A stretch of 64,000 nt of DNA from Enterococcus innesii. Its GTDB lineage: Bacteria; Bacillota; Bacilli; Lactobacillales; Enterococcaceae. The notes under the pieces are model-generated. The model saw only the letters and a program-made list of their open reading frames with translations. It was not told where the DNA came from and searched no databases. Below are positions 5,546-60,286 of the stretch, in pieces; positions within the stretch are counted from its first letter, which is position 1, and each line of letters opens with the position of its first letter. A program made the position numbers and the translations under genes. Where the stretch lies: the NCBI GenBank assembly GCA_018982785.1, contig JAHHEN010000006.1, positions 124,001-188,000 on the forward strand, given 5' to 3'.

Positions 5546-5601
5546 AAAAAGTGCCCTTGTCCAAAATGATGGCTTCCATCTTTTGGACAAGGGCACTTTT
5601 T
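5546..5601. terminator. Strong bidirectional terminator
   Basis: A 21-bp perfect stem (5546-5566 with 5581-5601) carries A and T runs on both sides. Its loop itself folds as GATGG-ctt-CCATC. It closes the DUF4044 gene on plus and the cls gene on minus. Confidence 0.9.
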
Positions 5602-7044
5602 ATAGTAACGGTGACACAAGACGTGCCAAACCTTCTTTGATTTTGATCGTCAACTTTCTTTGTTGATATGCTTCGATCGTTAGCGGCTTCGAATCGATCG
5701 AATCTGCTAGAAACGCTTCTTTCGTTTTGGTCGCTAGCTGCGCATCATAGATGATTGTATTAACTTCAAAATCTAGGCGAAAAGATCGGACATCAATATT
5801 TGCCGAACCAATCGATACAAGTCCACTGTCAATGATCATCGTTTTTGCATGCATAAACCCTTTTTCATAAGTCTCGATGATTGCGCCAAAGCGGAGCAAT
5901 TCAGCCGCAAATGAATAGGTCGCCCAGTAAACCAAGGGGTGATCAGGTTTGTTCGGAATTTGTATATGAACTTTCACCCCAGAGAGCAGGGCTAACTTTA
6001 AGGCATTATGAATGGCTTCATCCGGAATATAGTACGGCGTTTGGATTAGGATCTCTTTTTTAGCTAAATTGATCATTTTCAAATAAGTCATTTTGATTTC
6101 TTCATGTTCCGTATCAGGACCACTAGTGATGACTTGGGCAGCGACTGTCCCCGTTTGTTTGATCTCAGGAAACAATGCCGGATCATATTTGATCTCCAAG
6201 GCATGCTGTGAGTTCCAGTCCATTAGAAACCGATTTTGCAGCGAATAGACTGCTGAGCCGGCAATTCGCAAGTGATTATCTCGCCAATAACCGAATTTTT
6301 CCACTTGTCCTAGATACTCGTCTCCCACATTAAATCCACCTGTATAACCAATCTCACCATCAATCACCACGATTTTGCGATGATTCCGATAATTGATTCG
6401 CGGATTGACATAAGGAACGAACAAAGGAAAAAAAAGGCAATTTGCCCGCCATGTAGACGCAACTCATCAAAAAACTTCAAGGATACTTGGGTACTGCCCC
6501 AAGCATCTAATAAGACTCTTACTTTCACACCTCGCTTTGCCGCTCGTACCAATGCTTCTTTGACTTCATTCCCTAATGCATCGCTGCGATAAATATAATA
6601 TTCCATATGAATATGATTTTTTGCCTGTTCGATATCAGCAATCAAAGCATCAAATTTCTGCCGTCCATCGGTATAAAGCGTCATGCTATTGGCTGTCGTA
6701 TAGAGAGATTGACCAAAGACCGTCAACAGATAGACTAACTGCTGGACTTCTACTTGAGCAGTCGGCGGATGCGGAAACAAATGACGCGAAAGTGCTTGTT
6801 TTTGCTCTTCTAGTTCAACATTTAGACCAATCTTTGCTTGCGAGCGCATATCAAAGATCTTTTCCTTGGAGATCCCTCTTCCGAAGAAAAAGTAAAGAAC
6901 AAAACCAACAATAGGAATAAACATCAAGACCAAAAGCCAGGCCCATGTTTGAGCAGTCTGCCGCCTTTCTCTGAAAATGATAATAATTGATAACAAAATA
7001 TTGACTATAAACAAAATGGTTACTAGATTGTCCATTACAACCAT
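5600..7044 (-). pseudogene. cls: Cls, cardiolipin synthase, frame broken at an A8 run
   Basis: Cardiolipin synthase condenses two phosphatidylglycerols. Read with one extra base at the A8 run 6428-6435 the gene encodes 481 residues, the usual length. As written it splits into an N-terminal 226-codon frame and a C-terminal frame starting in FVPYVNPRINYRNHRK. There are two N-terminal membrane spans, then PLD-type domains with HRKIVVIDG and HAKTMIIDSG motifs. The start at 7044 has GAGGTG seven bases upstream. All active-site parts are intact on either side of the break, so this is probably a homopolymer sequencing error or a reversible slippage site rather than a decayed gene. Confidence 0.85.
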
Positions 7045-7130
7045 TTTTTCACCTCTTCCCCGATTTCCCGCTACTAAAGCATATCAAAAAATAGTACCTA
7101 AAGTAAAGAAACACTGTGAGGAAACAAAAA

Positions 7131-7152
7131 AAGCCGATCTGACGATCGACTT
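7131..7152 (-). terminator. Terminator after ftsX
   Basis: AAGCCGATC and GATCGACTT (7131-7139, 7144-7152) form a short stem with one G-U position. On the minus strand it is followed by seven T. It ends the prfB-ftsE-ftsX unit. Confidence 0.8.
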
Positions 7153-7166
7153 AAGAAAACATCGGT

Positions 7167-8051
7167 TTAGAATTTTAAGAATCGGCGCATCGATAAGACG
7201 GAACCAAGTGAACCGATCACGATCCCAATCAACGCCATCACACCACATACTTGAATCAAGAACAGATTTGGTGCAATTAGACTGTAATTTGAACGTAGCA
7301 AGGATGGATTGACCATTGCATAAACTTGATGATACCCGAAGTACATCAACGCAATTGGGACGATTGATCCTAAGAGTCCGATCCAGCCACCTTCAAGAAA
7401 GAATGGCCAACGAATGTAGCCGTTTTTCGCCCCTACCAGACGCATGATTTGAATTTCTCTTTGACGAGACAAAATCGTGATCCGAATCGTATTGGAGATC
7501 AAAAACATTGCTACAAAAATCAGTAAGACTGCCGCCGCTAAGCCCCAAGTCCGCACAGCCGCAGATAATTCAAAGATTCGGTCAGAAGAATCTCCGCCGT
7601 AATCGGCTTTGAAAACATTTGGCAATTCGCCCGCTTGTTCAGCGATCTCTGTCGTATACTCTGGATCTGTTGCACTGACGACAAACACGTTATAGAGCGG
7701 ATTGCTGTCGCCTTCGAACAAGTTCCATGAATCTCCCATGGCATCTTGGATCTTCTGCAATTCTTCGTCTCGACTAGAAAATTTCACTTCCGAAACGTTA
7801 GGTAGATCGTTTAAGGATTGTTCTAAAGCATCCATATCTTCTTGTTCCGTACCAATATCAACGAAAACCGAAACATCCACATTCTCACGAATGTCTTCGG
7901 CCAATTTTGTTGCATTTAAGATTACACCTAGAAAAATACCGACTAATGTCAGTGTGATCGTTACCGCACTCAACGACGCGATGGTCATCCAGCCGTTACG
8001 CTTTAAACTTTTGATACTCTCCAGGAGATGACGGAAAAATGTTCTAATCAT
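7167..8051 (-). CDS. ftsX: FtsX, cell-division ABC-type membrane subunit
   Basis: FtsX pairs with FtsE to control extracellular peptidoglycan hydrolases at the septum. I start at the ATG at 8051 (MIRTFFRHLLESIKS), which overlaps the ftsE stop by eight bases and gives 294 residues. Its GGAG lies 12 bases upstream, inside ftsE. One N-terminal span is followed by a large extracellular domain (about 45-165) and then three C-terminal spans. The conserved SRQREIQIMRLVGA coupling loop lies before the second span. A PcsB-like hydrolase, the partner class known in streptococci, is encoded at 43144-44520 in this window. Confidence 0.95.
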   Translation of the reverse strand: MIRTFFRHLLESIKSLKRNGWMTIASLSAVTITLTLVGIFLGVILNATKLAEDIRENVDVSVFVDIGTEQEDMDALEQSLNDLPNVSEVKFSSRDEELQKIQDAMGDSWNLFEGDSNPLYNVFVVSATDPEYTTEIAEQAGELPNVFKADYGGDSSDRIFELSAAVRTWGLAAAVLLIFVAMFLISNTIRITILSRQREIQIMRLVGAKNGYIRWPFFLEGGWIGLLGSIVPIALMYFGYHQVYAMVNPSLLRSNYSLIAPNLFLIQVCGVMALIGIVIGSLGSVLSMRRFLKF

Positions 8052-8730
8052 CGTAACCATATTCTCCTTCCGCTTGGTCGCGAATAATGCGGCCATTCTC
8101 AATCGCGATCACGCGATGACGAATCGTATTTACGATCGTACTATTATGGGTCGCCATAACGACCGTTGTTCCTTGGGCATTGATCCGATCAAGCAATTTC
8201 ATGATTTCCCATGAGTTTTCAGGATCTAGATTCCCCGTTGGTTCATCCGCAATCAATACTTTCGGCGTATTTACGATGGCACGAGCGATTGACACACGTT
8301 GTTGTTCCCCACCGGAAAGCTCACTCGGAAATACCCGTACTTTATGTTTCAGTCCGACTAAATCCAGAACTTCCATCACCCGTTTTTTGATATCACGGGG
8401 TTTGCGTCCGATAACTTGCATTGCATAAGCAACATTTTCAAAGACCGTTTTCCGCGGTAAAAGTTTGTAGTCTTGGAAGACCACGCCGATTTCTCGGCGC
8501 ATCAAAGGGATCTCACGGTTTTTCATGCCGACCAAATCATATCCTGCGACATTCAAAACGCCTTTTGTTGCTCTTTCTTCTCGATACATCAATTTGATAA
8601 AGGTTGATTTTCCGGCACCGGATGGTCCAACGACATAGACAAACTCCCCTTGATCAATTGAAATCGAAAGGTTGCGGATAGCAGTCGTACCATTAGAGTA
8701 CTTTTTCATTATATCTTTCATTTCTATCAT
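8044..8730 (-). CDS. ftsE: FtsE, cell-division ATP-binding protein
   Basis: FtsE is the ATPase of the FtsEX complex. The ATG at 8730 (MIEMKDIMKKY) has GGAGA nine bases upstream and gives 228 residues; a 20-codon upstream extension of the frame is not family sequence. The Walker A is GPSGAGKST (35-43), the Q-loop lies in GVVFQDYKLL, the signature is LSGGEQQR and the Walker B is VLIADEP. It overlaps ftsX by eight bases and follows prfB. Confidence 0.96.
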   Translation of the reverse strand: MIEMKDIMKKYSNGTTAIRNLSISIDQGEFVYVVGPSGAGKSTFIKLMYREERATKGVLNVAGYDLVGMKNREIPLMRREIGVVFQDYKLLPRKTVFENVAYAMQVIGRKPRDIKKRVMEVLDLVGLKHKVRVFPSELSGGEQQRVSIARAIVNTPKVLIADEPTGNLDPENSWEIMKLLDRINAQGTTVVMATHNSTIVNTIRHRVIAIENGRIIRDQAEGEYGYDD

Positions 8731-8842
8731 ACAGCTATCTCTCCATCTCAAATTTTCATTCTGGCTTATTATAGCATGAATATATTTCACCTTGCTTGCA
8801 ACAGATTACAATTATGTTTCAATCTGTTTAAGTCATAATAGG

Positions 8843-9950
8843 TTATTTTTGATTCAGTTTTAGCTTCAAATACGCATCGATAAAGCCATCCAAATCGCCA
8901 TCCATGACAGCCTGTACATTCCCAGTTTCGAAATTTGTCCGGTGATCTTTGACCATCGAATAGGGATGGAAGACATAGGAACGGATTTGCGAGCCCCATC
9001 CAATTTCTAACTGTTCGCCTCGCAAAGCTGCTGCTTCTTGTTCTTTCTTTTCCACTTCTAATTGATACAGCTTGGCTTTCAACATCCCCATCGCTTGCTC
9101 ACGGTTTTTCAATTGTGAGCGCTGGGCTTGGCTAGCAACTACCGTACCTGTCGGGATATGGGTGATCCGCACAGCAGATTCGGTTTTGTTGATGTGCTGT
9201 CCACCAGCGCCGCTTGCGCGGTACGTATCGATCTTCAAATCATCTGAGTTGATCTCCACATCGATCGCCCCATCTAATTCTGGCATCACATCCACCGAAC
9301 AAAATGACGTATGCCGTCTCTTAGCAGAATCAAAAGGTGAAATACGGACCAAGCGATGCACGCCTTTTTCCGACTTCAAATAGCCATAGGCGTTGTGCCC
9401 TTTCACAAGTAATGTGACACTTTTGATCCCCGCTTCATCACCGGCTTGATAGTCCAAGGTTTCCACCTGATATCCATGTTGTTCGCAAAAACGAGTATAC
9501 ATCCGTAACAGCATGCTGCCCCAGTCTTGCGACTCGGTACCGCCTGCGCCCGGATGAAGCTCGATGATCGCATTGTTCCGATCATAGGGTTCATCTAACA
9601 ACATCGACAATTCATAAGAAGCCATTTTCTCATTTAACTTACCGATTCGTGCTTCAAGTTCTGCTTCCATTTCCGGATCAGCTTCTTCTTGAATCATTTC
9701 TAGCATCACTTCGAGCTCTTCCAATTCTTCTGCTAGCTGATTGAATTGATCGTAGGTCTCTTTGTTGGCATTGTTGGCGTTAATGACTTGTTGGGCTTTT
9801 TCCGAGTCATCCCAAAAGGTGGGATCTGCCATTTGGTGCTCCGCTTCCGCAATGTCCTCTTCTAACTGATCTAAGTCAAAGAGACCCCCTAAAACTGATT
9901 ATTTTTTCATTCATCTGGGTCAATTGATTCCGAATATCTGCGATTTCCAT
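8843..9950 (-). CDS. prfB: PrfB, peptide chain release factor 2, made by programmed +1 frameshift
   Basis: RF2 recognises UGA and UAA stop codons. The start is the ATG at 9950 ([10 protein letters not shown]) with AAGGA upstream. After about two dozen codons the zero frame meets an in-frame TGA at 9878-9876, directly after CTT and preceded by the Shine-Dalgarno-like AGGGGG (9890-9885). This is the classical RF2 autoregulatory shift site CUU UGA C. The main frame resumes as [15 protein letters not shown]. The full product is 368 residues, with [11 protein letters not shown] (the SPF stop-codon loop) and GAGGQHIN (the GGQ hydrolysis loop). It sits between secA and ftsE on the same strand. Confidence 0.97.
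9876..9890 (-). promoter_or_regulatory. RF2 programmed +1 frameshift element
   Basis: On the minus strand AGGGGG, then TCTCTT, then TGA followed by C. Low RF2 slows reading of the UGA, so ribosomes slip +1 on CUU and make RF2; high RF2 terminates. All elements of the known mechanism are present. Confidence 0.96.
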
Positions 9951-10039
9951 TAAAATTCCTTCTTTCTTTTTTTTCTTACAAACGAAAGTAGACTGGACAA
10001 AAACGTCTGCCAGCCTACTCTCACCTTTTTCAAAACTTG

Positions 10040-12544
10040 TTACATATTTTTCCCGTGGCAATTCTTGAATTTTTTCCCGCTTCCGCATGGACAAGGATCA
10101 TTGCGACCCACGTTTTTGAAACTTGGCGCTTGGGCAGCCGGTGCTTCTTCTACCCCTTGTGCTTCTCCTTGGGCTACTTGTTCCCGTTGAACGTTTTGAC
10201 GAATCTCTGCCTTCATAAACAGACGCGTTACTTCATACTCGATGGCTCCAACCATGTTTTCAAACATATTGAATCCTTCTGTTTGGTACTCAACTAATGG
10301 ATTGTTTTGTCCATAAGCCCGTAACCCAACCGATTGACGCAACTGATCCATAGCATCGATGTGGTCGGTCCACTTCGTATCAACGACTCGTAAAATCACT
10401 ACTTTTTCAAATTCCAGTAATTGTTCTGGACTATTAAGTTGTGTTTTCTTTTGTTCAAAGACTTCTTCTGCCCGTTGGTTTAGATAATCTTTGATCTCTT
10501 GAGCTGATTTGCCCTTGATGTCTTCAATACTGATGGTATCTTCATGAACAAGTGCATTGGCCGCAAAATCAACGATTCCTTCATAATTCCAATTGCTTTC
10601 TTCTAATTGCGTATGACTGTCAACGACCCGGCTGATGGAGCGTTTCACCATATTCATTAATTGTGGTGAAAGATCCGTTTCTTCCATGATCACTTCTTGA
10701 CGTTGTCCGTAAATAACTTCCCGCTGTTCTCGCATTACGTCATCGTATTGCAAGACGTTTTTCCGGGTATCGTAGTTATTCCCTTCCACACGTCTTTGGG
10801 CAGATTCTACTTGTTTTGAAAGCATCTTGCTTTGGATCACGGCATCGCCTTCATCGATTTTCATCCGATCCAAGAACACTTTGATTCGTTCAGAACCAAA
10901 ACGCTTCATTAAATCATCTTCTAGCGATAAGTAAAATTGCGACATCCCTGGATCTCCTTGACGTCCCGCACGTCCCCTCAACTGATTATCGATCCGTCGT
11001 GATTCATGACGCTCAGTACCGATAACTGCCAAGCCGCCTAGTTCAGCAACACCAAGACCTAACTTGATGTCCGTTCCCCGACCAGCCATATTGGTCGCGA
11101 TCGTTACAGCGCCTTTTTGTCCCGCATTCAAAATGATTTCTGCTTCTTTAAAGTGATTCTTGGCATTCAATACTTCATGAGGAACTTTCTCACGATCAAG
11201 CATTGATGACAATAATTCAGACGTCTCAACAGCGACCGTCCCTACAAGCACGGGTTGACCTTTACGGTGACGCTCTTTGATGTCTTGAACGACTGCTTGG
11301 AATTTGCTCGTAAGCGTTGGATAAAGCAAGTCCGCACGATCATCCCGTAAAATTGGTTTGTTTGTAGGAATCTGAATGACTTGCATGTTATAGATTTCTC
11401 GAAACTCTTCTTCTTCTGTTTTCGCTGTACCGGTCATCCCAGACAGTTTTTTGTACATCCGGAAGTAGTTCTGGAATGTGATCGTCGCCATCGTTTTGGT
11501 TTCATCTTCGATCTCGACACTTTCTTTTGCTTCGATCGCTTGATGGAGCCCGTCAGAATAGCGGCGGCCATCCATGATCCGACCTGTAAATTGGTCAACG
11601 ATCATTACTTTCCCATCTTGCACCACGTAATCAATGTCGCGAATCATAATGTAATTCGCTCGTAGCGCTTGGTCCAAGTGATGGGTCAATGCCGTGTTTT
11701 CAATATCATACAAGTTTTCTAAGCCGAAAGTCTCTTCCGCTTTTTCGATCCCACGCTCTGTCAAACCGATCGTTTTTGATTGGATATCGATTTTGTAGTC
11801 TTCTTCTTCCGTCAAGCGTTTGACGAAATTGTCGACTCGATTGTATAGCGCGGTCGATTTTTCTGCTTGTCCTGAAATGATCAATGGCGTTCTCGCTTCA
11901 TCGATCAAGATTGAATCGACCTCATCGACGATGGCATAGTTTAATGGACGTTGTACCATTTGATGACGGTAAACCACCATGTTGTCCCGCAAATAGTCAA
12001 ACCCTAATTCATTGTTCGTACTGTAAGTGATGTCACAAGCATACGCCGCACGTTTTTCTTCTGCTGATTTTGAGTTGATGTTCAATCCGACCGTCAAGCC
12101 TAAAAAGTTGTACAGCTCTCCCATCTCAGTCGAGTCACGAGTTGCCAAGTATTCATTGACGGTTACGACGTGGACGCCTTGACCACTCAAGGCATTCAAA
12201 TAAACAGGTAATGTCGCCGTCAAGGTTTTCCCTTCACCGGTACGCATCTCTGGAATATTCCCATCATGTAAGACGATCCCACCCATTAATTGGACGTGGT
12301 AAGGATACAGGCCCAAAACGCGTTTTGCAGCTTCTCGTACCACTGCAAAGGCTTCAGGCAATAGTTTATCCAAAGTCTCTCCCTCTTGGAAACGACGACG
12401 AAATTCATCGGTTTTCCCGCGTAATTGTTCATCAGATAAAGCGGCCATTTCATCCGCATGTGATTCAACTTGATTCGCAATATGGTCAAGACGTTTTAAT
12501 TCTTTTTTGTCGTTTTCGATTAATTTTCTAAAAAAATTGGCCAT
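10040..12544 (-). CDS. secA: SecA, preprotein translocase ATPase
   Basis: SecA drives proteins through SecYEG. The 834 residues begin [15 protein letters not shown] at 12544 and carry Walker A RTGEGKTL (101-108), the DEAD-type [12 protein letters not shown] and the [10 protein letters not shown] helicase motif. The C-terminal zinc-binding SEC-C tail is [14 protein letters not shown]. The length fits Firmicute SecA1. It lies 89 bases upstream of prfB, a neighbour pair conserved from Bacillus to Enterococcus. Confidence 0.98.
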
Positions 12545-19135: not shown

Positions 19136-19831
19136 TCAAAATAACGATTCAACGGGCAAAGGAAAAGGATCGAATCGACTGGGGGCAAAGGTCTGCAATG
19201 CTTCAGCTGCGTGATATAACGTTCTACCGGTAGTGTAAACATCATCGATCAACAATAATTTTTTCCCTTTGATTTCACATGCTACATCCGGCTTCACCGC
19301 AAAAGGTTGGGCCTCCTCTAATCGTTGCTTGCGAGAACGTTGAGCTTGTGGTGCGGTATCAACCACTTTATCCAGCCATTCTTGCGACTTGACTCCGGCT
19401 GCGTCCAGCACAGCGGTCACTTGATTAAACCCTCGCTGCTGGTAACGTTCTGCCGATAGCGGGATGGGTATCAAACAATCGTATTCAAAGTTGTTGATCT
19501 TTTGTCTGATGGCCGCAGCAAAGGTCTCCCGCAACTGATAGTTTCCCATTAATTTGTATTCGTGAATCCACGCCTTCATCCCTTGATCGTAAGCGAACAG
19601 TGCCCGATGCTGCAAATGGATCATGGGACAGGTTTTCGCCCAAAAGAGACAGTCACTGCAGGAAATGGTATCCTTTTTGCCACATGTTGGGCAGCAGCTT
19701 TGCCAATCGATCACGGTAAATCGCTGAGCGCATTGTGGACATAATTCTTTTTCGGGGATGCGCCAAGGAGCCAACAGCTCAATGATCGTTACCTCTCTTG
19801 GAAAAAATATTTGGCACCAACTACACTCCAT
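19136..19831 (-). CDS. comFC: ComFC, phosphoribosyltransferase-like competence protein
   Basis: ComFC is needed for DNA uptake in naturally competent Firmicutes and probably works with ComFA. The 231 residues start with zinc-binding cysteine pairs (CSWC, CPQC, CPTC, CSDC). The C-terminal phosphoribosyltransferase fold has the PRPP loop KLLLIDDVYTTGRTL. Its ATG overlaps the end of comFA by 11 bases, so the two are translationally coupled. Confidence 0.92.
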   Translation of the reverse strand: MECSWCQIFFPREVTIIELLAPWRIPEKELCPQCAQRFTVIDWQSCCPTCGKKDTISCSDCLFWAKTCPMIHLQHRALFAYDQGMKAWIHEYKLMGNYQLRETFAAAIRQKINNFEYDCLIPIPLSAERYQQRGFNQVTAVLDAAGVKSQEWLDKVVDTAPQAQRSRKQRLEEAQPFAVKPDVACEIKGKKLLLIDDVYTTGRTLYHAAEALQTFAPSRFDPFPLPVESLF

Positions 19832-21130
19832 CGGTCAACCAGCTCCTTGCTAATTGGTTCATCTCATTGAGTTCTTTAATTGCTTGACGGATCGCTTCTG
19901 TCATTTGGTCGTAGAAAAAAATGACTTCCCCTTCTGTAAACGCACCTTTGCGATCGACACGGCCAGCGATTTGTACTAACGCCGATTTTGTAAAGACCGG
20001 GTGATTGGCTCCTAGTACCACCACTGAGACATTTTCAAACGTTACGCCTCGTTCTAAAATCATCGTTGTAAACAACACCTTGTACATTTGGCTGCGCGCC
20101 GATTGGACTTTTTCCCTCCGTTTTTCATCTTGTGAAGAAACACTAGTGATGAGCCATGATGCTTCTTGCCTGCGGACAGCCCCTTCCATTTCCTTCATCA
20201 GCTGAATACTTGGACAAAATACCAAGACAAAGTTTTTTTAACCAACCGCTGCAAGTGCTGTAGCAATGGTCGCAGCCAACGTTTTTTGCGATAAGCCTGC
20301 GCCCAGCGACTATAATGAATAGGTTTGGGAACGATCAGCGGACGCTGATGAAACCGCAACGGCATTTTCAACACAGCGAATTTTCCACGAATTTCTTGCA
20401 GCAGCCGTTCTGAAGGCGTCGCACTTAAATAGATCAGACACCCGTTTTCTGCCAAGGCATTGTATAATCCGTAACGCAGCTGCGTATCGCCCTCGTAGGG
20501 AAATGCATCTACCTCATCTACCACGATCAGTTGAAAGCTGCGATAAAAATGCAGTAGCTGATGAGTGGTGGCAATAAGGATCGTTGTATAACGATAAGGT
20601 TCTTCTGATTCCCCATAAAGGAGCAGGCTTTCCTCTTGTGGGAACGCTTGTTGAATCCGGGGGAACAGTTCACGGCAGACATCGATCCGTGGCGAGACGA
20701 TCGCCACACGACCACCTTCTTGCCGTACGTGGCGGATCGTTTCAAAGATCATCTCGGTCTTCCCTGAACCCGTGACTGACCAAACAAGAGACGATTTCTT
20801 TTGTCGACAATTTGCTACTAGTTGCTGAGAAATTTTTTGCTGAAACGAAGTCAACACTCCTGGCCAAACGATCTTGTGATCAAAGGCTGGAAGATCCGTT
20901 TGTTGAATTACAAGTTGGCCACCTGATGTGATCCGACCATAGCGAATACAAGTTGGACAGTAATAGCTGCCTATCGGTAATTGCACCGACGGCTTGTGGT
21001 GGGAAGATCCGCAACGCTGACAAACGATTCTCTTCCCCTGCTCGAGCATTGCCGGTCGAGAATCAAAGGGTTTTCCTACACTCATTGTTTCATCTAAAAC
21101 AAAATATTGTTTTCCTTTTTGACGATTCAT
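19821..21130 (-). pseudogene. comFA: ComFA, DNA-uptake helicase, frame broken at a T7 run
   Basis: ComFA is a DEAD-box-like ATPase that pulls transforming DNA inside. Adding one base at the run 20233-20239 restores one frame of 436 residues from the ATG at 21130 (CTGAGGTG upstream). As written the frame leaves at LVKK and re-enters as NFVLVFCPSIQLMKE. It has an N-terminal four-cysteine zinc site (CQRCGSS and CPTC), Walker A VTGSGKTEM, DEVD in VVDEVDAFPY and a C-terminal helicase domain with VQIAGRVDRKG. All motifs survive on both sides of the break. Confidence 0.85.
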
Positions 21131-21161
21131 AAAATACACCTCAGTTTTAAGTACGCAAAAA

Positions 21162-21201
21162 AACCGGTTCAAGTACTTTTCAAAAAGTACTTGAACCGGT
21201 T
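21162..21201 (-). terminator. Terminator after the PTS IIB gene
   Basis: A 19-bp perfect stem (AACCGGTTCAAGTACTTTT and its complement, 21162-21180 and 21183-21201) with a short loop. Six T follow on the minus strand. Confidence 0.85.
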
Positions 21202-28182: not shown

Positions 28183-28787
28183 ATGAAAAAATTGGATTTA
28201 CGTGTCAAACGAACCAATAAGTACATTATTGAAGCTTTTATCCGCTTAGTGGAAGAAAAAGGCTTCGAGCAAGTGACTGTCCAAAATATCGCCGATGAAG
28301 CCATGATCAACCGTGCAACCTTTTATGCCCATTACAAAGACAAACAAGACTTGTATGAAAAGATATTTGACTTGGCTGTCGAATCATTTACCGCGATTCT
28401 TGATTTTGAAGATTTTGTTCAAGGCAATCGCATCAAAATCCGCAAAATCGAAGCGGCCATGACCGAACTTTTTTACACATTCAAAACAATCGTTCCTTTT
28501 ATTTGACGATCATGGATGCCTCTGCCATTGAGATCATCCGTAAAAAGTTGGGCCTGATTTTGACTGAACGTTACCAAGAGATCTTTTCAACGTTAAGAAT
28601 CACCGAAGGAGACATTGAAGTGCCCTTAGACTTCATCATTGACTATATGACCTCGATATTTGTTGGTACCTTGCATTGGTGGCTAACGGCAGAAACAACG
28701 ATGACACCCGACCATCTAGCAAAACTTGTCATCAAACTGGTGGCAAACGGCCACCTGACTGTCTTGGGGATTGAGATTGAGGAATAA
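28183..28787 (+). pseudogene. TetR/AcrR family regulator divergent from the dehydratase, frame broken
   Basis: With one base added in the T-rich stretch 28497-28504 the gene encodes 201 residues. The helix-turn-helix is FEQVTVQNIADEAMINRATFYAHY, the standard TetR signature, and the C-terminal half (IEIIRKKLGLILTERYQEIF) is a helical ligand domain. As written the first frame stops at IVPFI and the rest re-enters as LTIMDASA. RBS AAAGGA precedes the ATG at 28183. The head-to-head layout with shared dyads makes it the likely local regulator of the dehydratase. Confidence 0.8.
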
Positions 28788-31241: not shown

Positions 31242-33219
31242 TTAATTTACTGATTTGTTCTCATGTGATGCAAGCCATTCACTGATCGCCTGCAAGCGTT
31301 CTATCCGCAGGTTTGGCAAGCCATTGCGTGATAAGCCATGAGAGGATTGAGGAAACAGCATCAGCTTCGTATCGACGCCTTGACGTTGCAACGCCATGTA
31401 AAACTGCTGACCTTGTTCTTGCGGACACCGCAAATCATTTTCCCCATGGAGGACTAGTGTAGGTGTCTTGACTTGGCTGGCATAGGCCAAAGGCGACATC
31501 TTCCAAAGTCCTTCGATCGCATCAAGTTCCCGCAACAATTGGAATTTGACAAAGCAGGTCCAATGTCGCTCGTCCCATAAAAGCTGATCCAATTTGAGAT
31601 CGAGCGTTGCGTAACTGCTGCACAAAAACGATCGGTATGGCCAACGATCCAGTTGGTCATAAAGCCACCATAGCTGCCGCCAGCTACATGGATCGTGTTC
31701 GTATCAATTTCTGGATGGTTTGCCACCACGGCATCAACCCCCAACAATAGGTCTTGATAATCTTTATTGCCATAATCACCTAAAATCGATTTGACAAACG
31801 TCTGCCCGTACCCTTGCCCGCCACGAGGGTTCAACAAGATGACCCCATAGCCGTTAGCGGCATGGACTTGCATCTCGTGGAAAAATGTTTCGCCGTAGCA
31901 GACTTGCGGACCGCCATGGATGTACAAAATTGCTGGATGACTTTCTTGTGTTTCGGTCGGGGGTAAATACCAGCCTTGAATTTGCCAACCATCTGCTCCT
32001 TCGTACCAAAATGCTTCGGGTTTACTGATCGCTAACTGTGACATAACTGCTTGGTTGGGATCGTATAGATCGGTTACTTCGCCACTTGTTAAGTCAATCA
32101 AGCCTAAACGACTAGGGATCGTTGGCGTCGCATAAGCAACAGCAAGTTTGGCTTCCGAATAGATCGCCGCATCAAGGATATCCATTTTTTCATCAAGCAG
32201 TTTGGTCCATTCTCCTTGGATCGAGGCGCGGTACAATTGTAGCTTGCCATGCTCCGTTACGGGAACAAGGAATGTGTCATCCGTCAACCAGGTGATCGCT
32301 ACGCCGCGATTTTTTTGTTGAAAATCACTGATGATCGCATTGCCAAAAGCGATGTCAAGATCTTGGGAAAGATTTTTGACCGCTTTTGTTTTTAAGTCGA
32401 CCAAAAACAAATCATCCAAGGTCACAAAACCATAGGAAAGATCATTGCCTAATAGTAATAGCTGATCATTGCGCGCTGCAGCAAAAGCATACGTTCCTTC
32501 TGGCAGGATGTTTTCTAAACTTTCTGTCTTTTTCGTCTGGCTATCAAGGAGACAAACCTTCGAGCCATAGTCCCATTCATCTTCTTCCTCTTTGTCAAAG
32601 GTGAGGAACAACGTCTTCTGATCATCCGCGATGCCAGAAAAAACAAAGGGAGAATCATGCTCAAAAATCAGTTCCGTTTCTTGTGTCACAATCGTTTTTT
32701 TGACGATGGCATGTTTTTTTCTTTTAAAAAGCCGACGCCATCCGCCAAGTAATTGACTTTCGTAGTAACTTTTACTTGTGGAAATTCCTTTTGCTTGTCC
32801 GTCTTTTCTTTGTCAGCTTGATCCTCTGAGACTGTCTCTTCTTGTGCCAGCTGGTAATAGATAGCCGTTGCGTCTTGCTTCCAAAAATAGTCCCCCAGAC
32901 CCTTCTCAGTGACAAGTGCTTGGGGCTTGCCGCCTGACACTGGCATCGTCCATAACGTACTTTCACCTTTTTTTGGATCGGTCGTCACAAAACTGAGCCT
33001 TTGCTCATCTGGCGAGACCTTTAGGTTGTTGTGGGTTGTCGCTTCTGTGCCCCACTCACGCCGTTCGTTGGTCTTTGCGTCAATACTATAAATCGCTGAA
33101 TCATACGTATTGGTCTCTTGGTTGACTGCCGTTTCCAAGTAAAAAACCTGATTTTGCCCCACTGCAGGCTGCGCAATCGTTTTCAGTTCAAACAGTGTCT
33201 CATTCGTTATTTTTTCCAT
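31242..33219 (-). pseudogene. S9 family peptidase (acylaminoacyl-peptidase like), frame broken twice
   Basis: With one base added at the T7 run 32714-32720 and one at AAA 31551-31553 the gene encodes 659 residues, the normal size of bacterial S9C peptidases. The N-terminal part is a WD40-like beta propeller and the C-terminal part an alpha/beta hydrolase. The nucleophile is in GGSYGGFMTNW, the aspartate in LHGENDLRCP and the histidine in SSHGLSRNG, so the triad is complete. As written it falls into three frames. Cytoplasmic peptide turnover is the likely role. No neighbour shares its operon. Confidence 0.85.
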
Positions 33220-37311: not shown

Positions 37312-37364
37312 TGTGACATTCCTCTTTTCTTTTGATTCGTTTCGCTTCAACCTATAAATAGTTT

Positions 37365-38767
37365 CTAAATCAGTTTTCCTTCATCGGTTGGTTGGTGTTC
37401 CATTTCAGTTCTAGATTTTTTCAAAAACCCTAACATCAATGCTGTAACCACCGTTCCAGAAACGATTGCCACGACATACATCAACGGATTGTTCAATACA
37501 TTGGGAATCGGTAAGATCCAGATACCACCATGTGGAGCTAATGAAGTTACGCCGACACCCATTGATATTGCAGCAGCGGTTGCTGAACCTGCCATCAAAC
37601 TAGGTATTACTCGTAATGGGTCAGCGACAGCAAATGGAATCGCACCTTCAGTAATATAAGATAATCCCAAAACCCAGCAAGACTGAGCAGAAGTTCGTTC
37701 TTCTTGAGTAAATTTTTGCTTAAACAAGATAGAAGCCAAGGCAATGCCTAGAGGAGGTGTCATCCCGGCAGCCATACAAGCCGCAATTGGTGCATTAACT
37801 CCTGCCGACATCAAACCAATACTAAAGGTTGAAATCGATTTATTGATGGGACCGCCCATATCAGCTGCCATCATAATGCCTATCAGTAAGCCGAATACCA
37901 CACCACTCGTAGAACCAAGTCCATTAAGCCAATTCGTCAAAGCATCCAATACATAAGAGATTGGTTTATCAATGAAATAAAACATGGCAAAGCCAGTCAC
38001 AGCAACTGAGATCAAAGGAACAATAATCAACTGATAGAGTGCCGCAAATGATTTTGCTACTGTTACTTTATTCGCTAAATAATCCGTAGCATACCCAGCG
38101 AGTAAACCACCAACCATTCCACCTAAAAAACCAGATCCTCCACTTGCCGCCATCGTTCCCGCAACCAAACCAGCGGCAAAGCCCGGTCTACCTGCAACGG
38201 AAGTGGCAATTCCTGCTGCAAGTGCAGGAACCATCAATGCAAAAGCCGTATTCCCACCAATCGTGCTTAAAACTTCGGCAATTTGATTGTATGAAGGATC
38301 GCTAGGATCAGCTGCATTGATCCCAAAAGCAAAACTAAACGCAATTAAAATTCCACCGGCAATAACCAAAGGCAACATGTAATTAACGCCATTCATGAAA
38401 TGATTATAAATGCCAGCTTTCTTTCCAGATTCGTTTGAAGCATGTTCGGCTTGGGCAATCGTGGTCACTTCTACCCCATCAATTGCCTCTTGAATTACTT
38501 TTTCTGGTTCTCTGATTGCTCTTGCGGTTGACACTCTTTTAACTTTTTTCCAGCAAATCGGTCGGTCTGTACTTCTTTGTCAACCGCTAAAATGACAACC
38601 TCTGCCTGTTGAATTTCTTCTGTACTCAAAATGTTTTCGACTTTTACACCTTGTGTCTCGATTTTGATTGTATATCCCAATGATTTTGCCGTTTTTTCCA
38701 GTTTTTCAGCAGCCATATACGTATGCGCAATTCCAGTCGGACAAGCAGAAATACCGACAATTTTCAT
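37365..38767 (-). pseudogene. Fructose-family PTS IIBC fusion, frame broken at a T6 run
   Basis: The IIB domain (MKIVGISACPTGIAHTYMAAE, phosphorylated Cys9) and the IIC membrane domain are in different frames as written and overlap by 40 bases. One extra base at 38544-38549 joins them as DRFAGKKVKRVSTARAIREP, exactly the linker seen in fused IIBC proteins, giving 467 residues. IIC has about eight to ten spans and FGINAADPSDPSYNQIAEVL. Since a single indel restores a standard protein, a true two-gene split is unlikely. Confidence 0.82.
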
Positions 38768-39252
38768 ACAGGTTCCCTCTTTTCTGATTGATTTGATTGA
38801 ATATTATTAATAATATCTGAGGCGTCTTTTGCCTTCTTTACTGCATTTCGAAATCCTTCGTGCATCAACAATCGTGCGAGATTGCTTAAGATGATTAAAT
38901 GATCGTCAGTACTCTTTTCAGGTACTGCGATGACAAAAGAATAGGTGACTGCCGTTCCGTCAATTGCTTGATAATCAGTAATTGGACTCGACTTTACGAA
39001 GGCGATTGCAGGCCTTAGTACTGCCTTACTTTTTGCATGAGGAATACCAAAATGATCTTCAATCCCAGTAGAGGTTTGTTTCTCGCGACGAAATAAATCG
39101 TTTTTGTACTTCTTTATATTACTGATAACTCCTGAGGACTCGAATAAAACAGATGCTTGAGTAAACAATTCTTCTTTTGTCCGAATTTGCTCATCAAATA
39201 AAATGAATCGTTCATTAATCAGTTGACCGATATCCAATTTCAACACCTCCAT
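38764..39252 (-). CDS. Fructose-family PTS IIA component
   Basis: Up to 162 residues of the PTS_EIIA_2 family. The phosphorylated histidine is in GIEDHFGIPHAKSKAV and the second conserved region is FVIAVPEKSTDDHLIILSNLA. The open frame starts at the ATG at 39252, but GGAGG lies inside it, eight bases before a TTG at 39237. A TTG start (LDIGQLINERF) is therefore quite possible. It overlaps the IIBC gene by four bases and heads the operon. Confidence 0.88.
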   Translation of the reverse strand: MEVLKLDIGQLINERFILFDEQIRTKEELFTQASVLFESSGVISNIKKYKNDLFRREKQTSTGIEDHFGIPHAKSKAVLRPAIAFVKSSPITDYQAIDGTAVTYSFVIAVPEKSTDDHLIILSNLARLLMHEGFRNAVKKAKDASDIINNIQSNQSEKREPV

Positions 39253-39256
39253 TTTT

Positions 39257-40865: not shown

Positions 40866-43001
40866 ATGAACGACCTAAAGGCTGAAAAGAAGCGTCTCGC
40901 AGACACGTACCAGCAATTGCTGACACGAAAGACAGTGCTGAGCAGTTTCTTGACTGAAGACAGAAAAAAGATCGCCTTGCGATGCAAAGCATCGGCGAAG
41001 AGATTCGCTTAAACTTTGATAATTTTGCTGACCGCCTAGATACTTTTGCTGCCATCGAAAGTAAGAACCGTGAGATCGACCAAATGAACGCCGCTCTTCA
41101 ATCTGCTGAACGTGAATTAGCTGCCATCGACCGTCTACTAGATAGTCCCTACTTTGGTAAAATCTCCCTACAGTTTGAAGATGAAGAAACGATAGAAGAT
41201 TTTTACATTGGGATCAATGGTTTTGTTAATGAAAATAAGGAAGGGCTGATCTATGATTGGCGCTCCCCAATTGCCGAATTGTTCTATGCCAAACGCTTGG
41301 GCCCGGTCTCTTATCAAGTGAACAATCAGAAGATTTCTGCCGCTCTTGAACATCGCCGACAATTTATTATCGAAAAAGATCACTTGAAGCAAGCCTTTGA
41401 TACCTCAGTGGCGATTCAAGATGAAGTGTTACTGGCAGCCCTTGAAGCCAATAATAGCCCAAAAATGCAAGATATCACTGCTTCGATCCAACACGAACAA
41501 AACGTCATCATCCGTGACTTAGCGCATAAAAACCTACTGGTCAACGGTGTTGCTGGAAGCGGAAAAACGTCTGCTGTCATGCAGCGGATTGCCTTTTGCT
41601 GTACCATTTTCGTGAAGAGATGACCGCAGAGAATGTCTTGATTCTCTCCCCGAATTCTCGGTTTATTGATTATATTTCGCAAGTGCTGCCTTCCCTCGGG
41701 GAAAAAATCCATTGACGCTGACCATGCGGCAGTTTTGCCAAACATTTCCTAGCGTTGACTTAGAATCGGAAGAGGCTTATTTTGACCGCATCCAGCAAGC
41801 CCCCTGTGAAGCAATCGACCTTTTGCGCAGCGCGGACTTCAGTCGCTTTCTTCAATCCTTGAGCAAACAGCTGCCAGAAGAACTTGTGCTTCAGTTTAAA
41901 CCAATCAAAAGAAAAAATGTCGTCCTTTTTTCTGAAGAAACGATCGAGACTTTCTTTCAAGAGACACCGAAGCAGGCATCCTTGCGCGATCGCATACAAG
42001 CAGTCAAAAAGAAATTGGCTTACGCTTGGGAGGAACGACTGCAAAAAAATGCCTTAGCAGCGAATGTTCACGACCAAGTTCGTTCTTTGACTGAAGACGA
42101 ACAGCGCTCCCTATTAGGGACAGTTTTAAAGGATGATTCAGAAAAAACAATTCAGAAAGCAGCCATTCGCCTCCTGAAGAAAAAATACGCAACGATTTCC
42201 AAACAAATCAAAGACCTTAATTGGTTTGATACGAAACGATTGTTAGCAGACAGTGCCGACTATTTTACTCATGGACAGATCACTTTGACACAAACAACAG
42301 CTAGTTTGGATTATACCGTTTGTCTATTGCTGATTCGTCATTTGCTTGCCGAAAAACAACCTGTCCCTGCGTTGCGCTATCTGTTTATTGATGAAGTCCA
42401 AGATTATACGCCAGCACAAATTCAGTTTCTATTATGTCTTTTTCCTATGACCGCTTTTACCCTCGTGGGGGATCAGCAACAGGCGATCTTTACAAGTGCC
42501 ATCACCGTATCAGAAATCCAAACGTTGTTTCAACAACAGGCGAAATCCCTCGAAACGTATCAGCTGACTACGAGTTATCGGTCTAGCGGTGCAATCACAC
42601 AGTTATTTGCCCAAATGCTGCCAAAAGAAACCAATTTAAACATCTCTGCCGTTCGACCAGCAGGAAAGTTGCCACAGTTTTATGCCAATCTGACTGACGT
42701 TGCCTTGGTAGACATAGTAAAGGAACTTAAGCAGCCAGTAACGATCATCACCAAAGATAGTCGATCTAGTGAGGAGCTCAAACAGTTCTTCGATAAACAG
42801 GCCGTGTCATTTCATGGAACGGTTTTACCGATTCATCTTGCCAAAGGATTGGAATTTAAGCAGGTTCTTTTATATGATGTTTCAGAAGAAAATTATCATA
42901 CCGATCAAGATAGACGGATTCTCTATACGGCGATTTCTCGGGCAATGGAAGAACTGGTGGTAACTTCAAAAGGAACCTTTTCGCCGTTTCTCACTCCTTG
43001 A
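40866..43001 (+). pseudogene. helD: HelD-like UvrD-family ATPase/helicase, frame broken three times
   Basis: Adding one base at A6 40964-40969, T4 41594-41597 and A6 41702-41707 yields one 712-residue protein from the ATG at 40866. HelD binds RNA polymerase and recycles stalled complexes. The start is coiled coil (MNDLKAEKKRLADTYQQLL). Walker A is NGVAGSGKTSAVMQR, the helicase motif II LFIDEVQDYTP, motif III LVGDQQQAIF and motif VI YTAISRAMEEL. All motifs are intact, so decay is not obvious. Three indels in one gene argue strongly for base-calling errors. Confidence 0.82.
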
Positions 43002-46408: not shown

Positions 46409-46760
46409 TGACGAGTCAATATTTATTCTTTGAAAGTGCAGCATACTATTACTACTATTATTTATTTCTCATTTAAACGATACAATCCCTAACCTCTATT
46501 GTATCCTTGTAACTCTGAAGTTACGCCAGGTTTGAATAAATTTCTTCAAAACAAGTAACGTGTGGTACAAAAATATTTGTCGCTTATCAATAACTATACC
46601 ATGAGACAGAGTGCAAATGGAAGAAAACGTACTTATTCTTAAACATTACTTAAACAAAAAGCTTTGTTTTCATACAGTGTTGCCCTTTAAGAATTTTACG
46701 TGAAGCGATTAACCTTCCTGTCATGCATATCTGCTAACCATTCGTATAAAGGAATTCCTT
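46409..46760. other. Intergenic region, about 350 bases, no gene seen
   Basis: AT-rich, with no ORF carrying an RBS and no strong hairpin. It separates the convergent metallophosphoesterase and SnoaL-like genes. Confidence 0.35.
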
Positions 46761-47700: not shown

Positions 47701-47901
47701 TTAACCTTTAACGATGTTTGTTGCTTGTAAGCCACGTTGGCCTTCTTCAACGTCGAAAGTCACTGCTTGACCTTCTTCTAAAGTTTTGAAGCCGTCGCCT
47801 TGGATAGCTGAGAAGTGAGCAAATACATCATTGCCGTCTTCACCTGTAATAAATCCAAAACCTTTATCTGCATTAAACCATTTTACTGTACCGTTATTCA
47901 T
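47701..47901 (-). CDS. cspA: Cold-shock protein, CspA/CspB family
   Basis: 66 residues from the ATG at 47901 (GGAGG upstream), [20 protein letters not shown] with [20 protein letters not shown]. The RNP1 (KGFGFI) and RNP2 (VFAHF) nucleic-acid motifs are intact. It acts as a single-strand RNA chaperone. A long 5' leader contains a pairable element (47919-47927 with 47958-47966), typical for thermoregulated csp genes. The exact csp letter cannot be set from sequence alone. Confidence 0.93.
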
Positions 47902-47918
47902 AAACGTATACCTCCATA

Positions 47919-47966
47919 TTACACATCGACTGTGTTTATTTGTTTGTAATAGAAAATGATGTGTAA
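47919..47966 (-). promoter_or_regulatory. Candidate leader stem next to the csp ribosome binding site
   Basis: GATGTGTAA (47927-47919 on minus) pairs perfectly with TTACACATC (47966-47958 on minus). The proximal arm ends three bases before GGAGG, so melting or refolding could expose the RBS in the cold. Confidence 0.5.
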
Positions 47967-48148
47967 TTGAAGTGTGTATCAATAGAAAAGATAAACAAGT
48001 ATTAACATATCAGAACTTTACCTATTCATCATAGCACGGTTAAAATAAAATAGCAAATAAAGTTGGGCTTTTTTCTTGATAAAAAGCGAAATTGTTAAGA
48101 AACCTTATGATTAAGCCTAGCAATTGCTTTATCTGGAAGAATCAAAAA

Positions 48149-52919
<4,771 letters not shown>

Positions 52920-56750: not shown

Positions 56751-57697
56751 TTACTCCATTTTGTAGCTTTGACGCGTCACTTTACCCTCTCGTACCGCAG
56801 CGATAATAGTTGGCACCGCCCCAATCGCCGTAAAGAGATAGATCAGACCTAAGTTCCCGTAATATTGACTCGCTTCCAAATACCCTTCACGAATCAAATC
56901 AGGTAAAATACGGAAAGCATAGAAGACATCAACGTCCGTGTAATAATTCGCTACACTGATCGACCAGTCAATACGATTCCCGACATAGACCATGATGATC
57001 ATGACGATAATACTACTAATAATACCTTTTGTGCTGAGTTTTCCACCTAGTAATTCATACCCTTTGATGGCACAGATCGCCATCGCGATCCCAGACAATG
57101 CAGCAACATACCCCAGTTGTCCTAATAAAATAATTGCGCCAGCACCAATCAGTGAGCCAAGAAACGCACCCACGGTTCCAGCTAACCAATTTTCTTTTTT
57201 CTGCCCTTTTTCCCGTTCTTGCGCAAGGACTGCTTCTTGTTGTTTCTTAAAGCAAGCTTCACAGGCAATGACGGGAGCGCCGCCAATCGCATACAGCGAA
57301 ACCGGCTCAGTGACCGCGCCGCAGAAGGTACAAGCATTTTGGAAACCTTTGGTCTTCAAAAAATTCGTCAACTGGTCCAACGCAGTACGTAACTTGTCCA
57401 CGGTTTTCCCTGCAGTCATCGCTCCGCGTAATGTATAGGCAACTTGATATCCTTGGATCACACAGTCGATGATCTCTTTTGACTCACTTAAAACTTCTTT
57501 GACTTCTTCTTGGTTGGGAAGTTCGCCATCTTTGCTAAGTGAAAAATGGGCCACTAGCGAATAACTATTGTTATTCTCTTGAACTAAAAAAGTTTATAAC
57601 TATGATACGTTCCATAAATCACCCCGGTGGAAGTATCAACTGAGAGCCTCAACGACTCGGCAAATTTGGTCAATGTCTTCTCGATCTTCTTATTCAT
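56751..57697 (-). CDS. Zinc-ribbon membrane protein, frame break at A6 hides the true start
   Basis: The long open frame would start at a GTG at 57554 without any RBS. Immediately upstream, the ATG at 57697 has a strong AAGGAG and opens a 37-codon frame (MNKKIEKTLTKFAESLRLSV). One extra base at 57586-57591 fuses both into 315 residues. The first third is soluble, the middle contains a zinc ribbon CTFCGA...CEAC, and about four membrane spans follow. The family is unknown. The four cysteines form a rubredoxin-like knuckle, pointing to a small envelope protein with a cytoplasmic zinc domain. Confidence 0.7.
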
Positions 57698-57805
57698 TTT
57701 TCTCCTTCTTTCCAACAAACACTTACCTTTTTAGGTATAGCTAAAAGTTTAAGGAGAGTAGAAATGAAAGTCAATCAATTTGTTCAAAAAACCTAGTTTT
57801 TTTAT

Positions 57806-58782: not shown

Positions 58783-58802
58783 AGAGTGCATCGCTGCACT
58801 CT
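58783..58802 (-). terminator. Terminator after the GNAT gene
   Basis: AGAGTGCA and TGCACTCT with a four-base loop, followed by six T on minus. It abuts the stop codon. Confidence 0.85.
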
Positions 58803-59425
58803 TAGGAAGTATAGATATAAAACTCGATTTCCTTCTTAATCGGTTTTTTGATCCAGCGTTTCACAGCAGCTGCCCGCTTCAAGCCCATATGCTCATAAAA
58901 ACCGTAATTACAGGTGGTATCGGTATAAAGGAAAAACGGAGCCGTTTTTTCCTGCTGGACCATCGCTAAAAAGGAAGTAAAGAGCTGCTTGCCTACACCC
59001 AATCCTTGTGTTTTGGGACTAACGGCAAACAAACCAACTTCGGTCTGAAAAGGAGTTTGTAAATCTTTCAACATCGCTTGATTTAACTCAGCCACCTCTT
59101 TGGCATAATGCAACAGCGTGTTTCTCCCTTCTTTCGTAAGCAGTAAGCAGCCAGCATGCCAAATCGTTTTCCCCCAATAGTGCATTGGATGAAGCTTCTT
59201 CCCTCTTTTACTGTCTGCTAATAAGATACCGACAGCTTCACCATTTAAAAGAGCCACACGTGAATAGGTCGCACGGGCAAGTTCATAACACAAAAAGACA
59301 TGAGCAAAGTGCTTGGCGGTCATCTTGTCAAATTGCTTGTCGTAGTTCCAGCTATCAATAATTACTTGCACAAGCGCAGACAGATCTTCTCGTTTAAATG
59401 GTCGATATGTTACTTGTTTATTCAT
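58802..59425 (-). CDS. GNAT family N-acetyltransferase
   Basis: 207 residues from the ATG at 59425 (GGGAGGAAG upstream); 41 upstream codons of the open frame lie inside the MerR gene promoter. The acetyl-CoA loop is VSPKTQGLGVGKQLF, followed by FFLYTDTTCNYGFYEHMGLKR. The gene is divergent from a MerR-type activator with a 19-bp-spacer promoter, so it is probably the induced target, for instance of a toxic amine or drug. The acceptor is unknown. Confidence 0.85.
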   Translation of the reverse strand: MNKQVTYRPFKREDLSALVQVIIDSWNYDKQFDKMTAKHFAHVFLCYELARATYSRVALLNGEAVGILLADSKRGKKLHPMHYWGKTIWHAGCLLLTKEGRNTLLHYAKEVAELNQAMLKDLQTPFQTEVGLFAVSPKTQGLGVGKQLFTSFLAMVQQEKTAPFFLYTDTTCNYGFYEHMGLKRAAAVKRWIKKPIKKEIEFYIYTS

Positions 59426-59456
59426 TCTATCTTCCTCCCAGTAGTTGACTATCCTT

Positions 59457-59487
59457 AGTATAAAGTTTACAGTAACTGTAAAGTCAA
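59457..59487 (-). promoter_or_regulatory. MerR-type promoter of the GNAT gene
   Basis: On minus TTGACT (59487-59482), 19 bases, TATACT (59462-59457). The over-long spacer contains the dyad TTTACAG-N3-CTGTAAA (59466-59482 overlapping its ends), the exact architecture that MerR proteins untwist to activate transcription. Confidence 0.85.
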
Positions 59488-59498
59488 GGAGGAACGCC

Positions 59499-60286
59499 AT
59501 GAAAACCAAATTAAAAGTATCGGAAATGGCACGCTTAGCGCGGATCAATCCTCGGACACTCCACTATTATGACGAGATTGGGCTATTTCAACCAAACAGC
59601 AAAGACGAGCACGGGTATCGGTATTATTCCCTTGATCAACTATTGGATCTCGGATTGATCCTATCACTGAAAGAATTATCGATGCCCTTAAAAGAGATCC
59701 AAACAGCGTTGCAGGGGGATGCCGAGACCATGAGAAACTTATTGGAAGCCAAGCGGCAAACCATCGATGAAAAAATTCAGCAGTTGAGCAACATCAAAAA
59801 AATCATCGAACGAAAAGCGGCGGATTTGCGCCTAGCTGCAGAAAAAACTTCCCCTTCACCTTGAAGGAACAGCCAGAGGAATATTTCTCCCTTAGTCCTA
59901 GATTAAACGGTAGCTCCATCCCAGAGATGATCACCCAAGCCTACGACCTTTTGATGGCACAGCCTTATCTTTTCTCAAATAACGAATATGGTTTTATGAT
60001 TCGGACGAACAAAGACGATACGCAAGACATCGACTACGTTTACGTGCGGCAAGAAGAACCACAACGTGCTTCCTTCGTGAAACCGGCAGGATACTATTTA
60101 ACCGCCATTTATCAGGGGGATGACGAAGGATTGAAGCAGTTCTATCAAAAACTCAAGCAGCTGATTGCGACGCACCAATGGCAAATCGATGACTACTTCT
60201 ATGAACGATCGATCCACGAAACGACCCTTAGCAACGAGCAAGCTTATTTGACAGAGATCCAAGTACGGATTTTATCTGAGGAATAA
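59499..60286 (+). pseudogene. MerR regulator with GyrI-like effector domain, frame broken at an A6 run
   Basis: MKTKLKVSEMARLARINPRT starts at 59499 with AAGGAGG upstream. The MerR wing is LHYYDEIGLFQPNSKDEHGYRYY, and the dimer helix follows. One extra base at 59842-59847 joins the C-terminal GyrI/effector-binding domain (LKEQPEEYFSLSPRLN), giving 262 residues of the BmrR class. Such proteins sense cationic or amphipathic drugs. The divergent GNAT gene carries the matching promoter. Confidence 0.85.

What the first reader, a model, noticed from the sequence alone, without database searches (positions are those of the whole stretch)
5600..60286. Thirteen single-base losses at homopolymers break ten genes
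Each broken gene is restored by adding one base to a run: 6428-6435, 20233-20239, 28497-28504, 31551-31553, 32714-32720, 38544-38549, 40964-40969, 41594-41597, 41702-41707, 49572-49577, 49694-49698, 57586-57591 and 59842-59847. All need +1 and none needs -1; all motifs on both sides are intact. A biased sequencing artefact (homopolymer under-calling) explains this better than ten independent pseudogenes. The alternative, genuine slippage in a mutator or phase-variable strain, would be remarkable.
Basis: partly seen in the sequence, partly recalled or inferred. Interest (0 to 1): 0.75.

Follow-up and report, generated by a model that had tools for sequence, protein, structure and literature searches.

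The report
Nanopore run-length errors, not pseudogenes
The broken genes in this stretch of an Enterococcus genome are very probably sequencing mistakes, because the genome appears to come from older nanopore data that under-counts runs of one letter, and the same one-letter losses turn up in the other parts of the genome that were sampled.

Summary
Against the closest relative held (G001), coding single-base gaps are 17 window-short and 1 window-long; that one and one of the 17 cancel each other, leaving 15 v 0 under stricter bounds. Eleven of the 13 listed sites lie at or beside a frame break, one of them judged from frames alone; two are misplaced within the right gene. A comFC-end break was missed. 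The bias recurs in five other sampled regions: 79 short, 13 long over 350,855 aligned bases, with balanced control pairs. The loss rate climbs with run length. Coding runs of 7-9 are not spared, although runs of 4-6 are. The most conserved quarter of genes is hit as often as its runs predict. One 23S rRNA copy, at a contig end, is short at six places. Size, contig number and closest relative fit Enterococcus innesii GAL7T, published from R9.4.1 nanopore reads with Racon polishing (PMC8744253). Essential genes in the window hold few long runs, so their integrity says little. Some breaks may be real. This is mainly an assembly artefact, not biology.

The parts
5600..7044 (-). cardiolipin-synthase-like (PLD domains) gene, split in two frames near 6.43 kb
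   Evidence: single frame in G001 and G004; G003 has its own break elsewhere in the gene
19821..21172 (-). comFA-like DEAD helicase gene (gene name recalled), split near 20.24 kb
   Evidence: intact in G001, G003 and G004
28183..28784 (+).
   Evidence: intact in G001, G003 and G004
31242..33219 (-). prolyl-oligopeptidase family (S9) gene, split twice
   Evidence: single frame in G001, L002, L003, L007 and L010; L011 shows one stop
37365..38770 (-). PTS EIIBC gene (EIIC by Pfam; EIIB read from the translation), parts in different frames near 38.54 kb
40889..43001 (+). UvrD/HelD-like helicase gene, split three times
   Evidence: single frame in G001, L002 and L010
48149..49597 (-). glycoside hydrolase family 1 gene, N-terminal end shifted near 49.57 kb
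   Evidence: intact in G001, L107 and L108
49666..51051 (-). second glycoside hydrolase family 1 gene, C-terminal end shifted near 49.70 kb
56751..57718 (-). gene of a protein of 322 aa in G001 without a Pfam match, split near 57.59 kb
59445..60286 (+).
482..4564 (-). mraZ-rsmH-ftsL-pbp cluster, intact contrast genes (names recalled from translations)
7167..12544 (-). ftsX, ftsE, prfB, secA, intact contrast genes (names recalled); with the previous cluster 0.77 breaks expected by the run model

Best explanation
The window comes from a nanopore assembly without short-read polishing, most likely Enterococcus innesii GAL7T (R9.4.1 pore, Guppy 3.6.0 high-accuracy calls, Unicycler with Racon). During a run of identical bases the pore signal hardly changes, so the base caller tends to report too few bases, and polishing with the same reads keeps the shared error (mechanism from general knowledge and PMC12007338). 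Each such loss inside a gene shifts its frame and splits it. Shown here: one-sided coding losses, dependence on run length, presence in all six regions sampled, similar losses in one rRNA copy, and the published method for a matching assembly. Inferred: that this genome is that assembly, and that the real DNA has the longer run at the listed sites.
For: Direction: coding single-base gaps 17 short / 1 long in the window, 79 / 13 over 350,855 aligned bases in six regions. Controls G004 v G003 17/21 and G001 v G003 66/75. Run length: share one base short of G001 for A/T runs of 5, 6, 7, 8 = 1.1, 2.5, 8.7, 37.5%; G/C runs of 5 and 6 = 4 of 78 and 4 of 6; in all 61 runs one shorter and 16 one longer; in the controls 1 of 342 A/T runs of 5-8 is one shorter. 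Coding A/T runs of 7-9: 18 of 107 short; non-coding 10 of 89, p 0.31. Most conserved quarter of 298 genes: 11 losses, 13.5 expected from run content. A Clp-type ATPase gene (829 aa; ClpC by recall, best NCBIfam models below their cut-offs) at 99.9% amino-acid identity is broken twice. 23S copy at C11:77-2986: six places short, one long inside the gene, where G004 agrees with G001 throughout. Identity: 3,687,248 bp in 14 contigs against 3,692,254 bp in 14 contigs for GAL7T, R9.4.1 MinION, Racon (PMC8744253, section 5 read). 65 of 298 genes (22%) carry a loss, close to 23.3% pseudogenes in an uncorrected long-read draft in PMC12007338 (passages read).
Against: No reads and no second E. innesii chromosome were on hand. 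A/T runs of 4-6 are shortened less often in coding (11 of 3,311) than in non-coding sequence (14 of 698), p 1.4e-5, which a uniform error would not give. Non-coding single-base gaps lean only 76 to 57, p 0.12. Contig C13 against the PacBio plasmid of strain CR-Ec1 gives 16 short / 9 long over 46,085 aligned bases, p 0.23. The two least conserved quarters of genes carry 52 losses against 29.2 expected, and the window 15 against 7.7. Broken genes have a somewhat higher nonsynonymous/synonymous ratio, 0.232 v 0.179. Against the distant G003 the bias is small, 76/60. The 23S copy with losses lies at a contig end, several of its six places are at short runs, and another copy is clean over its 5' half. 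The genome is 5,006 bases shorter than the published one; C11 is held as exactly 400,000 bases, so a cut is likely but not shown.
Confidence: 0.93

Rival explanations
1. A mutator strain (for example without mismatch repair) has truly lost one base at many runs, and the genes are recent real pseudogenes.
For: Run-length dependence is also expected of slippage; short runs (4-6) are shortened less often in genes than between them, as selection would do; less conserved genes carry an excess of losses; none of the broken window genes is known to me as essential (recall).
Against: Coding runs of 7-9 and the most conserved quarter of genes are not spared. Slippage should give gains too; coding losses exceed gains 79 to 13. 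A 23S copy carries six one-base losses. The eight intact contrast genes of the window are expected to hold only 0.77 breaks by run content.
Confidence: 0.03
2. A few of the sites are phase-variable switches in a normal strain, the rest being errors.
For: Runs of 7-8 bases inside regulator and transport genes are a usual substrate of phase variation (general knowledge).
Against: The genes hit have mixed functions; several breaks lie at runs of 4-6 or beside a run; the window behaves like the five other regions.
Confidence: 0.05
3. A minority of the breaks are ordinary real indels or pseudogenes fixed in the species.
For: Excess in poorly conserved genes (52 v 29.2), gaps not tied to runs, lower rate of short-run loss in genes, and a frame break in the cls gene of congener G003 at another place.
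Against: Of the 13 listed sites most sit at or beside runs, and all that were aligned go in the error direction.
Confidence: 0.2
4. Programmed ribosomal frameshifting joins the parts.
For: The window does hold one prfB-type programmed site near 9,881, found likewise in G001 and G003.
Against: Where relatives could be tested the broken genes are mostly single-frame (exceptions: cls in G003, one stop in S9 of L011), so no conserved signal is seen there.
Confidence: 0.01

Closest known systems
Homopolymer under-calling in uncorrected R9.4 nanopore assemblies (PMC12007338, passages read)
   Same: One-base deletions after long runs, A/T runs most common, about a fifth of genes fragmented
   Different: Here inferred from a related species and control pairs, without reads; the window assembly has extra losses in non-coding short runs that may be real
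Phase-variable contingency loci
   Same: Length changes in runs inside genes
   Different: Mixed gene functions, few gains; mixed run lengths within a clone could not be tested
Pseudogene decay in host-adapted bacteria (general knowledge)
   Same: Many split genes
   Different: The most conserved quarter of genes is hit as often as run content predicts, and a 23S copy shows similar losses

Membership tests
Nanopore homopolymer under-calling artefact | Losses far outnumber gains | tested here: met
   Coding 79 v 13, controls 17 v 21 and 66 v 75; non-coding only 76 v 57, p 0.12
Nanopore homopolymer under-calling artefact | Rate rises with run length | tested here: met
   controls 1 of 342 A/T runs of 5-8
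Nanopore homopolymer under-calling artefact | Independent of coding status and conservation after allowing for run content | tested here: inconclusive
   Runs of 7-9: coding 18 of 107, non-coding 10 of 89; runs of 4-6: coding 11 of 3,311, non-coding 14 of 698, p 1.4e-5; most conserved quarter 11 v 13.5, two least conserved 52 v 29.2
Nanopore homopolymer under-calling artefact | Also hits RNA genes | tested here: met
   One 23S copy at the C11 end, six short, one long; another copy is clean over its 5' half; the C1 copy has a 26-base gap and a few others near the contig end
Nanopore homopolymer under-calling artefact | Source data are nanopore without short-read polishing | tested here: inconclusive
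   Stated for GAL7T; that this genome is GAL7T is inferred
Nanopore homopolymer under-calling artefact | Accurate reads show longer runs | not testable with these tools
   no reads held
Mutator strain | Defective mutS/mutL or similar | not tested
   not examined
Mutator strain | Selection keeps conserved genes and rRNA intact | tested here: not met
Phase-variable locus | Mixed run lengths within a clone | not testable with these tools
   no reads held
Phase-variable locus | Enrichment in surface or regulatory genes | not tested
   29 of 81 hit genes were scanned, 23 matched a family, functions mixed; no enrichment test was made

The most novel reading that the evidence does not exclude
The strain really is a run-contracting mutator whose fragmented genes are biological, with about one gene in five broken.
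Probability: 0.03. Interest if true: 0.7.

Novelty: not a real feature. Interest (0 to 1): 0.07.

Why it matters
The genome appears to be the type-strain assembly of a species. Taken at face value it suggests extra or lost genes: 3,866 predicted coding sequences in 3.69 Mb against 3,339 in 3.50 Mb for E. casseliflavus (PMC8744253). Gene-content, pseudogene and phase-variation claims from it should wait for a polished sequence. The case also shows how far a relative, control pairs, run-length statistics and rRNA can diagnose such errors without reads, and where they fall short (short runs).

Tried and rejected
Mapping with the more distant G003 alone is too noisy: at 78-80% identity G000 v G003 coding single-base gaps are 76 short / 60 long against 66/75 for G001 v G003. 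The count of runs by length, without alignment, differs mainly at A/T 8 (32 v 47) and G/C 6 (9 v 13). PLSDB searches with stretches of four small contigs and one of the window found no record covering 80% of the query; one same-species plasmid was used, with the weak 16/9 result (four aligned pieces under 95% identity were dropped before that count). The idea that intact essential genes argue for selection was tested and dropped: open frames of full length were found at the rpoB match and at the four best-covered aminoacyl-tRNA synthetase genes (939, 890, 807 and 674 codons; names ileS, valS, leuS, metG recalled), but the run content, computed for rpoB, ileS and metG, predicts only 0.07-0.27 breaks each. 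A first script for the prfB site printed nothing because its filter was too narrow; one search replaced it. Of 81 genes with an uncompensated gap, 29 were scanned against a family library and 23 matched (the 30th protein was a window piece); the other 52 were not named. Of 17 stretches of this genome fetched, five were mapped to G001, all five entered the census, and the rest were not aligned in it (C13 was used for the plasmid count). Of eight 23S matches in this genome, five loci were compared.

Full report
What the window is. It is bases 124001-188000 of contig C11 of a 3,687,248-bp genome in 14 contigs, completeness 96.3, contamination 4.4; the five congeners held are at 99-100 and 1-3, and the genus search returned six genomes, this one included. 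The closest, G001 (3.5 Mb, about 50 contigs), is 91-97% identical over most of the window. The description of Enterococcus innesii GAL7T gives 3,692,254 bp in 14 contigs and E. casseliflavus NBRC 100478T (3,498,264 bp, 54 contigs) as closest neighbour at 94.5% identity; of its four strains only GAL7T has 14 contigs (PMC8744253, section 5 read). The 5,006-base difference may be a cut of C11, which is held as exactly 400,000 bases; that is inference. The paper says the genomes were sequenced on MinION with the R9.4.1 high-accuracy model, assembled with Unicycler and polished with Racon. The word Illumina occurs once in its main text, in the name of the library kit.

The observation. All gaps between window and G001 were listed from BLASTN alignments. 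In coding sequence 17 single-base gaps shorten the window and one lengthens it; the latter and one of the 17 lie four bases apart and cancel. With stricter gene bounds 15 uncompensated single-base losses, two two-base losses and no gains remain. The PTS site has no counterpart in the G001 stretches, but its two domains lie in different frames, and a 70% identical relative has one long frame. A comFC break was missed. Single-frame homologues exist outside G001 for cls (G004, not G003), comFA and tetR (G003, G004), S9 (four of five loci with a match; the fifth shows one stop), HelD (L002, L010) and the first GH1 gene (L107, L108). For merR and the 57-kb gene no match but the window itself was found in the stretches searched, so G001 is their only witness.

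Sampled genome. Five more regions on contigs C1, C7, C8, C12 and C10 were aligned to G001. With the window, over 350,855 aligned bases, coding single-base gaps are 79 short / 13 long and non-coding 76 / 57. Without the window the coding count is 63 / 12, p 1.7e-9; the non-coding lean has p 0.12. Control pairs are balanced: G004 v G003 17/21, G001 v G003 66/75. So the coding shortness belongs to this genome, not to the reference.

Run length. For runs with matching flanks the share one base shorter than in G001 is 0.05% at A/T 3, 0.08% at 4, 1.1% at 5, 2.5% at 6, 8.7% at 7 and 37.5% at 8; at 9, four of six differ by two or more; G/C 5 gives 4 of 78 and G/C 6 gives 4 of 6; in all, 61 one shorter and 16 one longer. 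In the controls 1 of 342 A/T runs of 5-8 is one shorter. Choosing runs by the reference length favours shortening somewhat; binned by the longer allele, coding runs are 44 short / 6 long and non-coding 34 / 19.

Selection test, mixed. Real frameshifts should be rarer in genes. For A/T runs of 7-9 they are not (18 of 107 coding, 10 of 89 non-coding, p 0.31), but for runs of 4-6 they are (11 of 3,311 against 14 of 698, p 1.4e-5). I read this as real indels between genes on top of errors in long runs; it is also what selection on real slippage in short runs would give. Among 298 genes at least 95% aligned, 65 carry a loss (76 losses, 8 gains; 54.6 losses expected from run content). The quarters from most to least conserved show 11, 13, 26 and 26 losses against 13.5, 12.0, 15.7 and 13.5 expected. 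The excess in the lower half may be real indels, losses outside runs, or alignment noise. A Clp-type ATPase gene that is 99.9% identical in protein is broken twice. The eight intact contrast genes of the window hold so few long runs that 0.77 breaks are expected, so their survival says little.

RNA genes. The 23S copy at C11:77-2986, at a contig end, is one base short at six places and long at one inside the gene, while G004 agrees with G001 over the whole gene and the G003 pieces over the part they cover; several of the six are at short runs. Another C11 copy is clean over its 5' half; the C1 copy has a 26-base gap and a few small ones near the contig end. The 4,774-bp contig C6 carries a 23S copy with 42 shorter and 32 longer places over the 3.3-kb alignment, as barely polished reads would.

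Weak or contrary results. Contig C13 against the PacBio plasmid pCREc1 of strain CR-Ec1 gives 16 short / 9 long, p 0.23; four pieces under 95% identity were left out. CR-Ec1 was sequenced by PacBio (PMC5814486, whole text read) and its species named as E. innesii in PMC10434003 (passages); PacBio can also lose run bases (PMC12007338, passage). Broken genes show a nonsynonymous/synonymous ratio of 0.232 against 0.179. No reads were available.

Literature. PMC12007338 (passages) reports pseudogenes falling from 23.3 to 5.6% on correction of a long-read draft, with deletions after long A/T runs most common; here 65 of 298 genes (22%) carry a loss. The main text of PMC8744253 does not hold the words frameshift, pseudogene or homopolymer. 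Of 18 papers holding the word innesii (17 listed) I opened three (PMC8744253, PMC11316570, PMC10434003, passages and one section) and saw no mention of the problem in what I read; the others were seen as listings only.

Verdict. Very probably an artefact of nanopore base calling, seen through its effect on genes, with some real indels likely mixed in. Useful for data quality, not new biology.

Noticed in passing
window 9881 (-): A programmed +1 frameshift site of prfB type (stop after a CTTT slip, as recalled for release factor 2), same in G001 and G003; the script gave no line for G004. The frame break in the window that is surely biological.
   Followed up: yes
G000 contig C6, 1-4774 (L179): An rRNA-bearing contig at 93.5% identity to G001 with 42 shorter and 32 longer places, looking like barely polished reads.
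   Followed up: partly
L097 10511-11993: Congener G003 has its own frame break in the cls gene at a different place from the window; real or an error of that genome is open.
   Followed up: no
window 35628-39563: A stretch with PTS, DeoR-type regulator and aldolase-like genes (names recalled from translations) is missing between the flanking genes in G001 contig C21.
   Followed up: no
window 46467-46555 (+): Rfam match to the small RNA BsrC, 56.6 bits against a cut-off of 38.
   Followed up: partly
window 47661-48030 (-): Rfam match to the cspA thermoregulator, 86.9 bits against a cut-off of 78.
   Followed up: partly
G000:C11:247744-248832 and G001:C15:51454-52542: A PTS EIIC-like match with one in-frame TAA in both genomes at the same query span, a possible shared real disruption or two-part gene.
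   Followed up: no
A/T runs of 4-6, six sampled regions: Short runs are shortened about six times more often between genes than inside them, unlike long runs.
   Followed up: partly
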